Positions 3,377-9,837 of a DNA stretch of 36,113 nt are shown piece by piece. Each line of letters starts with the position of its first letter. Position 1 is the stretch's first letter. The position numbers and the translations under genes are program-made. The notes beneath the pieces are model-generated. The model did no database searches. It saw only the letters and a list, made by a program, of their open reading frames with translations, and was not told the DNA's origin. The DNA comes from a virus. The DNA is taken from positions 1-36,113 of IMG/VR virus record IMGVR_UViG_3300043772_001644, one strand, 5' to 3'.

Positions 3377-3853
3377 CTATTTCTTTAATTTTTTTTCAAA
3401 ATCAATAGAAAATAATGCCAATTTATACGCGTCACGCTTGTCTTGCTCTGAAATTAAGCCTTTATAATTCAAAAAAACGGTGTGATTAAAGTGTTTTGAG
3501 TACAATTTTAACTGAGCATCATTCCACTTTTGGCCTTTTAACTTAGGACTGACCTCAAAAACGTTGTTTTTAAAGAGTTTTTGTAAGATTCTGAATGTAG
3601 CTTCCGATATTGCCTGATTCATACCAACGTGACGGCTTTTTTTGGCTATTTCCGGCTTGCTTCCTTTCATGTCAAAAGTTAGATCTTGAAGATAACTGTT
3701 TTCGACCGTATAAATACCAACCGGCGCAATCCAAACCCAATCTAAAAAGTGCATAAAGTCTTTGAAGACTATAAAATCAACGGTTTGATTTTCTATAATA
3801 CAGGCACAAAAGCCGTTTTTCCTGAATGCCGGGTCAATTCCTATGTAGATCAA
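3377..3853 (-). CDS. RuvC-like Holliday junction resolvase / RNase H-fold nuclease
   Basis: 158 residues from the TTG at 3853. The frame extends upstream to an ATG at 3961, but that would overlap the GH73 gene by 128 bp, and the conserved domain begins exactly at the TTG (IYIGIDPAF). Three acidic motifs fit a RuvC/RNase H fold: GIDP near the start, VENSYLQ in the middle, and QDKRDAYKLAL near the C-terminus. The segment KLKGQKWND before it is also typical of RuvC-like phage enzymes. It probably resolves branched DNA during replication or before packaging. It overlaps the upstream gene by 20 bp. Confidence 0.7.
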   Translation of the reverse strand: MIYIGIDPAFRKNGFCACIIENQTVDFIVFKDFMHFLDWVWIAPVGIYTVENSYLQDLTFDMKGSKPEIAKKSRHVGMNQAISEATFRILQKLFKNNVFEVSPKLKGQKWNDAQLKLYSKHFNHTVFLNYKGLISEQDKRDAYKLALFSIDFEKKLKK

Positions 3854-4292
3854 GTTTATTGAGTTTATAGTGTTCAATGATTTTGCCAATATGATGCCAA
3901 TAATTACCGGCACCGTATCCTTTGAGCATCTGCCAGTATTTATAATCTTTTCCGGTCGCATGTTTATAGTGGAAGATTAGGAATTGAGCGTGGTCAAAAT
4001 ACCCTTGTATTACGGTAGAATATTTGCGCCATTCCATTCCGGCGCGATCTGTAAAACAATCGCCTCGAAAAGCCTCTGGATAATATTTGATTCCGAAGTG
4101 ATTGTTTGAATGTTTACCAATATAAGATACACCTCCACCGGATTCTGCGAGCGCCTGCGCTAATTGAACGCTTGTAGGCACGCCATAGACAATCTCGCAT
4201 AGTTTGGCAACCGGATAATATTTAGTGATGTATTCCGTTTGGTTTTGCGGTTGAAGGAATAGAATGAGTGCGATTTTATAGATTAGTGTCAT
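3834..4292 (-). CDS. GH73-type glucosaminidase (peptidoglycan hydrolase)
   Basis: 152 residues. A weak N-terminal hydrophobic stretch (MTLIYKIALILFL) may be a signal or anchor. The core is a glucosaminidase domain: GVPTSVQLAQALAESGGG, with the probable catalytic Glu in LAESG, then SNNHFGIKYY and a C-terminal GYGAGNYWHHIGKII. Enzymes of this family cut the glycan backbone between GlcNAc and MurNAc. It sits among replication genes, overlapping the 103-residue gene by 4 bp. It is one of three cell-wall-active genes in the window, the others being at 9217 and 12065. Confidence 0.8.
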   Translation of the reverse strand: MTLIYKIALILFLQPQNQTEYITKYYPVAKLCEIVYGVPTSVQLAQALAESGGGVSYIGKHSNNHFGIKYYPEAFRGDCFTDRAGMEWRKYSTVIQGYFDHAQFLIFHYKHATGKDYKYWQMLKGYGAGNYWHHIGKIIEHYKLNKLDLHRN

Positions 4293-4604: not shown

Positions 4605-5378
4605 TTAAGGTTTTAAAAATTCCCAAACAAATAACTTTGAATACATGGCATCACATTTGGCCTGAAACGTTTCATTTCCGGCTCCTTCAAAACTTTTTAG
4701 TAGTGCGCGGTTGTGTTTAGCCTCGTACAAATTAGTAAAATCTGCAGCCTTTTTCTGATGTTCGCGTTTTACTAAATGCTGCGCCTCAGACCAGACTCTT
4801 TTTTTTGTTTCGTCATCGAGTTGTATAATTCCGTTGTCGATTAAGATTTTCGGCCAGTGGATTCGTATTTCTTCGTGACTGTTATACTTTAGTGGAAGAC
4901 CGTTTTTTTTCTTATCGAGTTCGGCCTTAAATTCGGCGATTACTTCCTGTCGTGCGATAAAATTTTTATGGTCTACCTCGTTGACAAATGTTTCGCCGCG
5001 AATGTTTTTTTGATGCAAATGTTCTATTTCGACTATTGCTTTGTTTCTACGTTTTGAATATTCGCTTAAAATATCGCCTAACATAGATACGTTAAACTTG
5101 CCGTAATAGGCCACCATATTAACATCTATTTCATTGTTAGCGCCCATTTCAAAAGCCAGTTTAATTTCATTTATAGATATGTTTTTGTAGTTTCTATAAA
5201 CAAAGAGAACTGATTCTTTGAGTACGTTATCATTAAGGTCGTCGTTTTTAATGCCACAATAGACTTCGGCGCAAAATCTGAGTGCGAGCGATATTCCTGT
5301 TATTGATTCTTCATGATTTAGGTTTTTGATTATTAAGTAGTGATTGGATAATATTGTTTTCAAATTGTTCTTGCTCAT
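4605..5378 (-). CDS. Replication-associated phage protein (helicase-loader-like position)
   Basis: 257 residues if started at the ATG at 5378 (MSKNNLKTIL). An upstream ATG at 5462 would overlap the initiator-like gene by 152 bp, so I prefer the later start. The conserved-looking part is ISLALRFCAEVY...NISINEIKLAFEMGANNEID...YGKFNVSMLGDILSEYSKRRN. This resembles a protein that commonly follows the DnaD-like initiator in Bacteroidota phages. The C-terminal half is charged and helical. A role in loading the helicase or organising the replisome is inferred from position only. Confidence 0.6.
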   Translation of the reverse strand: MSKNNLKTILSNHYLIIKNLNHEESITGISLALRFCAEVYCGIKNDDLNDNVLKESVLFVYRNYKNISINEIKLAFEMGANNEIDVNMVAYYGKFNVSMLGDILSEYSKRRNKAIVEIEHLHQKNIRGETFVNEVDHKNFIARQEVIAEFKAELDKKKNGLPLKYNSHEEIRIHWPKILIDNGIIQLDDETKKRVWSEAQHLVKREHQKKAADFTNLYEAKHNRALLKSFEGAGNETFQAKCDAMYSKLFVWEFLKP

Positions 5379-6225
5379 TGAGAGCGTTGAGTGACATTTC
5401 GATAATGTTAGTAACAGATCGCTGCCTAATCTCTTGTTCTGATTGATAATTTCTATTTCCATTTTTCTGGTTGTTTTGATTGTTGTTAAATTGTTTTAAT
5501 AAATCGTTGTTTATAAATGTTCCGTCCCAATTATTTGCAATACAATTTTCAATACTTGCGATTACTATATTTTCTCCATATTGTTTTACTTCCTTTTCAA
5601 ATTTATCCATTCTGGCCTGAATGGTCATTTGTGTTTTATAAGGTTTTTTCTTTTGCCGTCTATGTTCAAAAAAGTCATTTATTTTCTGAATTAAATTAGG
5701 GGTAAATTCCGGAGGAAAAACTAAAGTAAAATTCTTTTTACTTTCTTTTTTAATTGAGTTAGTAATTGTGTTAGTAATTGAGTTAGTAATTGAGTTAGTA
5801 ATTGGTATTGTATTGACCATTTGGGCATTTCCATTTTCCTGTTTGGGCATTTCCATTTTACCATTTGGGCAAATGGATTTTACCGTTTGGTTACTTGCAT
5901 TTTCCTTTTTAGGCATTTGTAAAAATTGACTCTCATTATCAAAAGCATACCAGATAGTTCTATCAAAACCTAATTTGTTATAATTTCCCTTAATTAAGAT
6001 TTTGAGGTTTAAAAGGTTTTGAAGTATTGCCCTTACCTGTTTTTCACTCCAGAAAGGAAATAACTCAGAAAGTGCTTTAATTGTGTTATATGTCCAATAA
6101 TGGCCATCGTAATAATTAGAATTGTTAGCTTTGTTTAACCTGATCCAATATTGAAAAGATTTAATCATTATAGCTTCGTCAACTCCATAGCGTTTGGCTA
6201 ATTCAACATCAAAACTATATTCCAT
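5311..6225 (-). CDS. DnaD-like replication initiator / replisome organiser
   Basis: 304 residues. The N-terminal ~105 residues look like a winged-helix domain (VELAKRYGVDEAIMIKSFQYWI, then FWSEKQVRAILQNLLNLKIL). A low-complexity middle (about 105-160) is built of repeated Met/Pro/Lys/Asn and Ile-Thr-Asn-Ser units. The C-terminal domain ends in a DnaD-like motif (IENCIANNWDGTFI). A winged helix plus a DnaD-type tail is usual for phage replisome organisers that bind origin iterons and recruit the helicase loader. The repeats in the middle are direct DNA repeats that may be the origin itself. Confidence 0.7.
   Translation of the reverse strand: MEYSFDVELAKRYGVDEAIMIKSFQYWIRLNKANNSNYYDGHYWTYNTIKALSELFPFWSEKQVRAILQNLLNLKILIKGNYNKLGFDRTIWYAFDNESQFLQMPKKENASNQTVKSICPNGKMEMPKQENGNAQMVNTIPITNSITNSITNTITNSIKKESKKNFTLVFPPEFTPNLIQKINDFFEHRRQKKKPYKTQMTIQARMDKFEKEVKQYGENIVIASIENCIANNWDGTFINNDLLKQFNNNQNNQKNGNRNYQSEQEIRQRSVTNIIEMSLNALNEQEQFENNIIQSLLNNQKPKS
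5752..5804 (-). repeat. Four tandem AT-rich 12-bp repeats within the initiator-like gene
   Basis: Plus-strand unit AATTGAGTTAGT starts at 5752, 5764 (one mismatch), 5776 and 5788, with a partial fifth copy at 5800. They encode an Ile-Thr-Asn-Ser repeat. Lying next to the 22-bp array, they resemble the AT-rich unwinding element of an iteron origin. Confidence 0.6.
5820..5929 (-). repeat. Five 22-bp iteron-like direct repeats (candidate replication origin)
   Basis: Units begin at exactly 22-bp steps: 5820, 5842, 5864, 5886 and 5908 (plus-strand TTTGGGCATTTCCATTTT and variants). The first two share 18 identical bases. Copies three to five drift. A period near two helical turns places each unit on the same DNA face. 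The array lies within the initiator-like gene, as the origin lies within gene O of phage lambda. Confidence 0.55.
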
Positions 6226-6474: not shown

Positions 6475-6487
6475 AATTCTATAAATT

Positions 6488-6542
6488 AAAAAACCCGCAA
6501 CAATTCGCCGGAGGTCGGAGTCTCCTTTGAATTGATACGGGT
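6488..6542 (-). terminator. Long-stem terminator/attenuator before the replication operon
   Basis: On the minus strand the arm rc of 6529-6542 pairs with rc of 6493-6506 (14 positions, one G-U and one mismatch), followed by T's at 6492-6488. The loop contains CTCCGACC (rc of 6513-6520), which is exactly complementary to GGTCGGAG upstream (rc of 6583-6590). With one G-U pair this extends to ten base pairs. A loop-to-leader pairing of this kind suggests a pseudoknot or an anti-termination switch. Confidence 0.6.
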
Positions 6543-6622
6543 AAAAAGTTAATGTTAGTATTTAAAACAGTTCGTTATTCAGCTCCGACCCCGAAAAACA
6601 AACCTTAATTTTTTTTTAAATA

Positions 6623-6649
6623 AGGCAGCCGAACGTTGCCCGACTGCCT
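6623..6649 (-). terminator. Terminator-like hairpin with weak T tract
   Basis: AGGCAGTC (rc of 6642-6649) pairs with GGCTGCCT (rc of 6623-6630) over 8 bp including one G-U. Only TTATTT follows on the minus strand. It lies just after a 24-codon reading frame. It could be a terminator or part of a larger leader fold. Confidence 0.4.
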
Positions 6650-6657
6650 GATAATTC

Positions 6658-6732
6658 TTAGGATTTTTTATTCCAATCTTTGCATACAGTTTGCGGCTGG
6701 CTGCAAAGTAAACAATCAAAAACCATTGCCAT
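6658..6732 (-). CDS. Possible 24-aa leader peptide with cysteines
   Basis: A short frame begins MAMVFDCLLC, includes SQPQTVCKDW and ends before a TAA at 6658. It has three cysteines (CxxC, then C), so it may be a tiny zinc-binding peptide. A promoter-like site lies just upstream and a hairpin just downstream, which is the layout of an attenuation leader. Whether it is translated cannot be judged from the sequence alone. Confidence 0.35.
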   Translation of the reverse strand: MAMVFDCLLCSQPQTVCKDWNKKS

Positions 6733-6747
6733 AGTTTGATTGCAGCA

Positions 6748-6780
6748 CAAATATAGTAATAATATTCTAATTATCAGCAA
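6748..6780 (-). promoter_or_regulatory. Possible promoter upstream of the structured leader
   Basis: TATATTTG (rc of 6748-6755) is an exact -7 match. The best TTG (rc of 6778-6780) is 22 bp away, a little far. It lies in the end of the 63-residue gene. Confidence 0.35.
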
Positions 6781-8923: not shown

Positions 8924-9017
8924 TAACCCTGACAGGATTTGAACCTGTAACGTACATCTCATATCTTTGATGTAAGCACTTGATAATAGTTGCGTCTACC
9001 AATTCCGCCACAGGGTT
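8924..9017 (-). tRNA. tRNA-Leu-like gene (class II) with poorly paired anticodon arm
   Basis: The acceptor stem AACCCTG/CAGGGTT pairs fully, with discriminator A and no encoded CCA. The D-arm (GCG...CGC with GAATTGGTAGA) is typical of tRNA-Leu. The T-arm ACAGG-TTCAAAT-CCTGT is perfect. A long variable arm (TACATC/GATGTA) supports class II. The anticodon arm does not form a normal five-pair stem in any register I tried. A CAA (Leu) anticodon with T before and G after would need a mismatched stem. It may be a degenerate tRNA, or a phage tRNA with an unusual arm. Confidence 0.7.
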
Positions 9018-9038: not shown

Positions 9039-9220
9039 TAATGCTGATAACATCTACCGCTGCAATTCGTTGTTTTATTCTTGCATCTCGTTTTACTCTT
9101 TGTCATACCTCCGCACTGAGTAGTTGAACAATTACTACCATAAGATTTTGTTTTCATGATTGGCACCTGAGCGCAACTTGTAAAGAAAACAACTAACAAA
9201 AGATAGATTAAATTTTTCAT
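9038..9220 (-). CDS. Small lipoprotein with cysteine/histidine cluster
   Basis: 60 residues. The N-terminus is a lipoprotein signal peptide ending in a lipobox (VVFFTSC), so the mature protein would be lipid-anchored at Cys16. The C-terminal half has the pattern QCGGMTKSKTRC...NCSGRCYQH, like the short C-x-G-x-T-x-x-G/K-x-x-C...C-x-x-H metal-binding motif (DUF5763-type). It overlaps the GH73 gene by 4 bp, so it may take part in lysis as an outer-membrane component, which is inference. Confidence 0.65.
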   Translation of the reverse strand: MKNLIYLLLVVFFTSCAQVPIMKTKSYGSNCSTTQCGGMTKSKTRCKNKTTNCSGRCYQH

Positions 9221-9837
9221 TTGTCTAATTTGTAAAGTTTATAAGTTTCAATAATACTGATTAAATTCTTTTCGTAACGTTTCGATGTTGCATATCCGCA
9301 GCGCTGCAATTCCTTCGCCCAATGTTTGTAATCCTTAGATTTAAAACAACTTTTGTATCTGTCATTGAGCAAAATCTTTGAATGTTCCCGATAAGATTCC
9401 CATGCCGTTTCAAATATTCTAAACATATCATAAATGTCGTCATCCGCGTAATTAGCGCACCGGCAACCGATACATTTTGAATAGCATTTAATACCGAAAT
9501 GATTGTTATCCTTAATCGCCATCTTTGACTGTCCGGCTGCGCTTTCAATTATACCCTGAGCCAAAGTAATGGAGGCCGGAATGCCGTATTTGTCCTGTTC
9601 GATTAGTGCAACCTTTGTAAACCTTTCGATATATGCCTCAAATTTGCTTTTATTATCAGTTTTAAGCGCGTTTTGTGTCACGTTGGTAGTATTTACCGCG
9701 CTATCTTGTAAAACTGTCTTAAAAACCGTTTTTTGTGGCGTTGGTTTTGGACTTTTTTTGTCCAATCCGGAATTAAATTCTAAATAAGCGGTGCAATAAA
9801 GAAAACAACCGCTCAAGATCATAAATATTGTTTTCAT
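9217..9837 (-). CDS. GH73-type glucosaminidase with N-terminal signal/anchor
   Basis: 206 residues. A hydrophobic N-terminus (MKTIFMILSGCFLYCTAYL) is a signal peptide or signal anchor. A Ser/Thr/Pro/Lys linker reaches about residue 60. The glucosaminidase domain follows: YGIPASITLAQGIIESAAGQS, with the probable catalytic Glu in IIES, then DNNHFGIKC and later CGYATSKRYEKNLISIIE. Two extra cysteine pairs (YSKCIGCRCANY) lie in the domain. It is coupled to the lipoprotein gene. Within an early operon it may help entry or late lysis. It is distinct from the shorter GH73 gene at 3834. Confidence 0.8.
   Translation of the reverse strand: MKTIFMILSGCFLYCTAYLEFNSGLDKKSPKPTPQKTVFKTVLQDSAVNTTNVTQNALKTDNKSKFEAYIERFTKVALIEQDKYGIPASITLAQGIIESAAGQSKMAIKDNNHFGIKCYSKCIGCRCANYADDDIYDMFRIFETAWESYREHSKILLNDRYKSCFKSKDYKHWAKELQRCGYATSKRYEKNLISIIETYKLYKLDK

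What the first reader, a model, noticed from the sequence alone, without database searches (positions are those of the whole stretch)
5752..5929. Candidate phage origin: 22-bp iterons plus AT-rich 12-mers within the initiator-like gene
Five units recur at exact 22-bp steps (5820 to 5929), next to four AT-rich 12-bp repeats. Both lie in the part of the gene that encodes low-complexity sequence. The layout (iterons beside an AT-rich unwinding region within the initiator gene) is that of lambda-type origins. Protein repeats could in part cause DNA repeats. However, copies one and two share 18 identical bases and the period is kept across poorly matching codons.
Basis: partly seen in the sequence, partly recalled or inferred. 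Interest (0 to 1): 0.75.

Follow-up and report, generated by a model that had tools for sequence, protein, structure and literature searches.

The report
Phage replication origin inside initiator gene
Part of this phage gene does two jobs at once: it encodes a flexible stretch of the protein that starts DNA copying and, in the same letters, carries the row of DNA sites which that protein very probably grips to start copying; hundreds of related phages share the arrangement, and the matching of protein and site can be read from their sequences.

Summary
Five 22-bp units (5813-5922) and about 4.5 AT-rich 12-mers (5751-5804) lie in the disordered linker of a 304-aa initiator gene (5311-6225, minus strand). 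Because 22 is not a multiple of 3, successive units are read in three frames (MPK / NAQ / CPN of ATGCCCAAAT), so no protein repeat explains them; 0 of 3000 synonymous shuffles reach the observed match. Among 165 non-redundant homologs 22 bp is the best lag in 136, and in 45 of 55 held-out ones. Each unit is a dyad (arm - AAA - arm') whose arms covary between phages. Two residues at the start of the recognition helix (62 and 65) outrank all other domain columns in covariation with the arm bases (D62 with C 8/8, K62 with G 32/36, E/D65 with G 10/10, R65 with C 43/51). Lambda O and RepA_N plasmid initiators have the same layout. Best reading: initiator dimers bind the iterons, the adjacent AT-rich tract melts, and helicase is loaded. 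Binding and origin activity are inferred, not shown. It is a new member of a known kind; the family-wide signature and recognition correlation seem unreported, as far as my literature searches reach.

The parts
5311..6225 (-). Replication initiator gene, 304 aa: wHTH domain (1-103), disordered linker (about 112-160), helical C-terminal part (176-298)
   Evidence: phrog_11233 E 7e-33, phrog_6493 E 1e-23, phrog_678 E 2e-18; AlphaFold model, mean pLDDT 81.6
6007..6045 (-). Codons of the recognition helix (residues 61-73); K62 at 6040-6042 and R65 at 6031-6033 are the columns that covary with the iteron arms
   Evidence: helix 61-73; covariation
5901..5922 (-). Iteron 1 (first in gene sense), TTACAAATGCCTAAAAAGGAAA, phase 0
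5879..5900 (-). Iteron 2, ATGCAAGTAACCAAACGGTAAA, phase 1
5857..5878 (-). Iteron 3, ATCCATTTGCCCAAATGGTAAA, phase 2
5835..5856 (-). Iteron 4, ATGGAAATGCCCAAACAGGAAA, phase 0
5813..5834 (-). Iteron 5, ATGGAAATGCCCAAATGGTCAA, phase 1
5751..5804 (-). AT-rich 12-mer array (TAATTGAGTTAG on the + strand), probable unwinding element, 8 bp beyond the last iteron
   Evidence: the least stable 70-bp stretch of the gene starts at 5721; the 70-bp stretches here reach the 97th percentile of the window for instability
4605..5462 (-). Next gene in the operon, 285 aa, overlaps the initiator 3' end by 152 bp; phrog_26016, function unknown; by position a candidate helicase loader
   Evidence: 18-67% identical relatives within about 1-2 kb downstream of the initiator in related contigs; no PDB fold match

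Best explanation
The 22-bp units are the DNA-binding sites (iterons) of the initiator encoded by the same gene, and together with the adjacent AT-rich 12-mers they form the phage replication origin, in the manner of lambda ori within gene O and of the Rep boxes within pSK41 rep. An initiator dimer binds each dyad, with the recognition helix of each wHTH (K62, R65) reading one arm (GGGC) beside a central A-tract. The 22-bp spacing, about two helical turns, puts all bound dimers on one face of the DNA. The assembled complex strains and opens the AT-rich tract, and the helicase is loaded there with help from the initiator's C-terminal part and possibly the next gene. The linker protein sequence is largely free, so the DNA can serve as origin. 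Shown here: the repeats, their frame independence, conservation, dyad covariation and helix-to-site covariation. Inferred: binding, melting, loading and origin activity.
For: Profile matches to replication initiators. Period 22 against codon frame and shuffles. Best lag 22 in 56/68, 136/165 and 45/55 held-out homologs; absent from the N domain and C part of the same genes. Synonymous-shuffle p < 0.05 in 60 of 68 genes. Dyad score 0.66 against 0.48 in column shuffles, 89% of 96 loci significant; arm pairs 2-6 complementary well beyond permutation when the centre is set by framework columns only (z 4.7-6.9) and in 26 held-out loci (z 4.0-5.8). Residues 62 and 65 are the top two of 91 domain columns (z 9.5 and 9.8, next 3.5), stay on top among pairs under 50% identical, and predict arm bases in held-out loci better than permuted (p 0.0005 and 0.0095). 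They lie in the helix 61-73 of the model. RepA_N initiator domains are the best PDB fold matches. AT-rich tract at the iteron end in 54% of loci against 15% expected. Lambda O control: dyads ATCCCTC-AAAA-CGAGGGA spaced 20, 24, 23 bp.
Against: No binding, melting or replication data for any member of this branch. GC skew gives no peak here: cumulative skew falls nearly steadily through most of the window. 20 of 165 homologs have neither 22 nor 23 as best lag, though several still score well at 22. Accuracy gains over the majority base in held-out loci are small (0.57 against 0.48) and based on 23 loci. The fold match to RepA_N is tied in Z with unrelated wHTH proteins. The dyad of the window's own units is imperfect (score 0.59).
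Confidence: 0.87

Rival explanations
1. The iterons are initiator-binding sites but serve mainly as an autoregulatory operator or copy-number control within the operon; the true origin is elsewhere.
For: The initiator-site covariation speaks for binding specificity, not for origin function; no skew peak here.
Against: The sites are deep in the gene, not at a promoter; they stand beside the AT-rich tract in most loci, as in lambda and SPP1, where origin function is established (PMC4488673, PMC6316719). No second array of the iteron was found in the window.
Confidence: 0.08
2. The DNA repeats are a by-product of a repeated, low-complexity peptide linker or of replication slippage.
For: The linker is low-complexity and disordered; the 12-mers have a period divisible by 3 and vary in number in the closest relative.
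Against: The 22-mers run through three frames, exceed synonymous shuffles, keep the same period while the unit changes, and have covarying arms.
Confidence: 0.03
3. The dyads act as RNA hairpins in the mRNA rather than as DNA sites.
For: Arm - AAA(N) - arm' would form small hairpins.
Against: The iteron RNA of the window folds no better than shuffles (-19.1 against -18.2 +/- 3.2); spacing is fixed at two helical turns; arms covary with the DNA-recognition helix.
Confidence: 0.02

Closest known systems
Phage lambda ori within gene O
   Same: Origin in the middle of the initiator gene; dyad iterons with a central A-tract; spacings near 22 bp (20, 24, 23); AT-rich tract on the 3' side (PMC4488673, PMC7466680); both proteins match profile phrog_678.
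   Different: Lambda spacing is irregular, here exactly 22; the best family profiles differ (phrog_277 against phrog_11233); no recognisable lambda P neighbour.
RepA_N plasmid initiators (pSK41, pTZ2162 Rep) and PLE RepA
   Same: N-terminal domain binds boxes lying centrally within rep, and the central protein part is encoded by the ori (PMC5703833); iterons are inverted repeats converging on a poly-A tract (PMC7145576); best fold matches 4pql, 4pt7, 5kbj, Z 9.3-9.7.
   Different: No Pfam RepA_N hit for the window protein at E up to 0.1; plasmid rather than phage; in PLE the ori lies in a non-coding region.
Phage SPP1 G38P and oriL within gene 38
   Same: Initiator binds direct repeats placed inside its own gene beside an AT-rich unwinding element (PMC6316719).
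   Different: SPP1 has a second origin, oriR; its record was not found in the collections held here, so sequences were not compared.
Staphylococcus phage DnaD-like helicase loader family (phrog_6493)
   Same: Same protein superfamily (E 1e-23); phiIPLA88 has a weaker in-gene 22-bp lag.
   Different: Annotated as helicase loader rather than origin binder.

Membership tests
Lambda-type in-gene origin | Direct-repeat iterons inside the initiator gene | tested here: met
Lambda-type in-gene origin | Iterons are imperfect dyads with a central A-tract | tested here: met
   lambda control
Lambda-type in-gene origin | AT-rich, easily melted tract adjoining the iterons on the 3' side of the gene | tested here: met
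   5751-5804; family
Lambda-type in-gene origin | Initiator related to lambda O by sequence | tested here: inconclusive
   Both match phrog_678 (E 2e-18 and 2e-35), but their best families differ
Lambda-type in-gene origin | Helicase-loader gene follows the initiator | tested here: inconclusive
   ORF 4605-5462 overlaps the initiator end; phrog_26016 of unknown function, no PDB fold match
Lambda-type in-gene origin | Initiator binds the iterons and replication starts there | not testable with these tools
   Only indirect: helix-to-arm covariation
RepA_N initiators | RepA_N domain by sequence profile | tested here: not met
   No RepA_N hit in Pfam at E up to 0.1
RepA_N initiators | N-terminal wHTH fold of the RepA_N type | tested here: inconclusive
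   Best matches are RepA_N domains (Z 9.3-9.7), but tied with the wHTH of NtcA at 9.4
RepA_N initiators | Binding boxes centrally within the rep gene, inverted arms around a poly-A tract | tested here: met
   PMC5703833, PMC7145576
Phage replication initiator family phrog_11233 | Profile match over the N-terminal domain | tested here: met
   E 7e-33, residues 3-127

The most novel reading that the evidence does not exclude
Across a very broad family of phage initiators the origin can be located, and its half-site partly predicted, from the initiator sequence alone, because two recognition-helix residues (62 and 65) follow a simple code (basic residue with G, acidic residue with C, one on each strand) and both partners lie within a few hundred bases of the same gene. 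Phages would thereby change replicon specificity by coupled drift of helix and iterons in one small cassette.
Probability: 0.7. Interest if true: 0.72.

Novelty: new member of a known kind. Interest (0 to 1): 0.56.

Why it matters
Replication origins are unknown for nearly all phages known only from metagenomes. A 22-bp lag running against the codon frame in the linker of an initiator gene marks the probable origin from sequence alone, over phages of Bacteroidota, Pseudomonadota and Bacillota. The residue-to-base correlation makes initiator-origin specificity, known in principle from lambdoid type specificity and PLE RepA, testable over hundreds of natural pairs. It also shows one stretch of DNA under two constraints, coding and binding, where the binding constraint dominates.

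Tried and rejected
Protein-repeat and mRNA-hairpin origins of the 22-mers were tested and rejected. A leave-one-out test restricted to pairs under 40% identical had too few pairs to be informative (12-41 usable loci); thresholds of 50-60% were used instead. A first transfer test had only five usable loci, so further loci were fetched. The PDB by sequence gave nothing useful. GC skew did not locate an origin. SPP1 could not be fetched. The neighbour ORF 4605-5462 was modelled (pLDDT 87) but matched no solved fold with confidence, so its role as a helicase loader stays a guess from position. Literature searches for a published family-wide description or recognition code of these initiators found none in the open library; subscription papers are not held.

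Full report
WHAT IS THERE. The gene at 5311-6225 (minus strand) encodes 304 residues. It matches replication-initiator profiles phrog_11233 (E 7e-33, residues 3-127), phrog_6493 (DnaD-like, E 1e-23) and phrog_678 (O-like, E 2e-18) and no Pfam family at its cut-off. The window is a whole virus record of 36,113 bases. AlphaFold with 43 sequences gives a confident winged-helix domain (helices 7-13, 15-33, 49-55 and 61-73, strands 77-80 and 92-95), a linker of very low confidence (112-160) and a helical C-terminal part. The repeats lie in the DNA that encodes the end of the domain and the linker.

THE REPEATS. Five 22-bp units occupy 5813-5922 and 12-mers occupy 5751-5804. The point that decides against a protein cause is arithmetic: 22 = 7 x 3 + 1, so each unit is read in the next frame. 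The common core ATGCCCAAAT is read as MPK, as NAQ and as CPN in MPKKENASNQTVKSICPNGKMEMPKQENGNAQMVN. The observed lag-22 identity (0.70 over 88 nt) was not reached in 3000 shuffles that keep the protein and the codon usage, nor in 2000 dinucleotide shuffles at any lag of 10-30, and it is the strongest such signal in the window. The 12-mers are also non-random, but their period is a multiple of 3 and the closest relative has fewer of them, so for them DNA selection and slippage cannot be told apart from this genome alone.

CONSERVATION. Homologs were taken from named phages, IMG/VR and GTDB genomes. In 68 non-redundant genes the mean best 44-nt identity in the linker is 0.67 at lag 22 and 0.55 at lag 44, against about 0.36-0.44 at most other lags up to 50 (0.46-0.47 at 23, 24 and 45; 0.54 at lag 12), while the N domain and the C part show nothing at 22; 22 is the best lag of 15-30 in 56. 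In 165 genes under 70% identical it is best in 136, and in 45 of 55 genes fetched later and under 70% identical to all earlier ones. 60 of 68 genes exceed their own synonymous shuffles at p < 0.05. The unit sequence changes between phages while the period stays.

DYADS. Stacking the units shows a common frame, A(T/A)TT-arm-AAA(N)-arm'-AAAT, with arms such as GCCC/GGGC, GTCA/GACA, CACC/GGTG and TGCA. Mean dyad score is 0.66 against 0.48 for column-shuffled units with the centre re-chosen, and 89% of 96 loci are individually significant. To avoid choosing the centre by symmetry, I fixed it by the framework columns alone: arm pairs 2-6 are then complementary in 59-87% of 71 loci, z 4.7-6.9 against permuting arms between loci, with all four base pairs seen at pair 4. 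The held-out 26 loci repeat this (z 4.0-5.8). This is what a dimer-binding site does when its specificity drifts. Lambda iterons have the same form, ATCCCTC-AAAA-CGAGGGA, and spacings of 20, 24 and 23 bp.

PROTEIN-SITE COVARIATION. Mutual information between each domain column and the arm bases puts residues 65 and 62 first of 91 columns (z 9.8 and 9.5; the next is 3.5). Residues inside the linker also correlate, trivially, because the iterons encode them, and were left out. Restricted to pairs of domains under 50% identical, 62 with arm position 4 (z 16.7), 62 with position 2 (9.5) and 65 with position 5 (7.9) lead all combinations. Rules learnt on 71 loci beat permutation in 23 usable held-out loci (p 0.0005 and 0.0095), although the gain over always guessing the commonest base is small. 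Over all 97 loci: K62 with G 32/36, D62 with C 8/8, H62 with C 3/3; R65 with C 43/51 (G on the other strand), E65 and D65 with G 10/10, G65 with A 5/5. Basic with guanine and acidic with cytosine is the expected chemistry of helix-base contacts (general knowledge). Both residues sit at the start of helix 61-73, the recognition helix of the wHTH. All columns share the same phylogeny, so the excess of these two is unlikely to be descent alone, but no formal phylogenetic model was fitted. The window protein has K62 and R65, the class whose commonest arm is GGGC; its left arm reads GCCC.

UNWINDING TRACT. In 54% of 96 loci the most AT-rich 40 nt of the gene begin within -20 to +90 of the iteron end, against 15% expected, and 92% of strong 12-nt arrays lie there. 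In the window the least stable 70 bp of the gene start at 5721. Lambda and SPP1 origins place an AT-rich unwinding element beside the repeats (PMC4488673; PMC6316719).

COMPARISON WITH KNOWN SYSTEMS. Lambda ori lies in the middle of O with iterons and an AT-rich tract (PMC7466680). pSK41 Rep binds four boxes centrally within rep through its N-terminal domain, and its central part is encoded by the ori (PMC5703833). RepA_N iterons are inverted repeats converging on a poly-A tract, and in PLE the DNA-binding domain covaries with the origin (PMC7145576, PMC8263062). The model of the window protein best matches RepA_N domains (4pql Z 9.7, rmsd 4.4, 104 residues; 4pt7 9.5; 5kbj 9.3), but unrelated wHTH domains come as high (NtcA 9.4), so fold alone does not place it. 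It works like these systems; it is filed as a phrog_11233-type phage initiator with a lambda-like in-gene origin, not as a RepA_N member, because the sequence profile was not met.

WHAT IS SHOWN AND WHAT IS INFERRED. Shown by computation: repeats, frame independence, conservation, dyad symmetry, arm and helix covariation. Inferred: that the protein binds these sites, that the AT-rich tract melts, that helicase is loaded there, and that this is the phage's origin. The downstream ORF 4605-5462, kept near the initiator in related phages, is a candidate loader by position only.

MODULARITY. The closest relative (L001) is nearly identical over the domain and iterons (6 of 300 and 3 of 110 bases differ), while its C-terminal part is clearly diverged (alignment). 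This fits domain and iterons travelling as one unit, as reported for PLE RepA.

Noticed in passing
6475-6766, minus strand: The 292-nt leader upstream of the initiator operon folds far better than shuffles (z -4.6) and ends in a hairpin followed by six U (about 6492-6542), like a terminator. A TATATTTG promoter-like motif lies at its start. A 7-nt segment GTCGGAG in an upstream loop (6583-6589) is complementary to CTCCGAC in the hairpin loop (6514-6520); in relative L001 both have changed and still pair (GTAGTGG / CCACTAC), which suggests a kissing-loop control of the replication genes.
   Followed up: partly
8924-9017, minus strand: A tRNA gene of unusual form: ARAGORN reports a four-base anticodon (atca), Rfam scores it as tRNA at 41.9 bits.
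   Followed up: no
4605-5462, minus strand: A gene of unknown function (phrog_26016) overlapping the initiator end by 152 bp, all-helical model of good confidence (pLDDT 87) with no match in the PDB.
   Followed up: partly
L001 against window 5311-5750: The initiator C-terminal part is strongly diverged between two phages that are 97-98% identical over the domain and iterons, suggesting exchange of the C-terminal module at the origin.
   Followed up: partly
3834-4292 and 9217-9837, minus strand: Two separate glucosaminidase-domain genes in one small phage, one beside the replication genes and one near the ERF recombinase.
   Followed up: no
L190, initiator linker: This homolog has a near-perfect 24-bp repeat encoding SPSESEAG with no 22-bp lag (0.98 at lag 24): here a protein repeat seems to have replaced the iterons, so its origin may lie elsewhere.
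   Followed up: no
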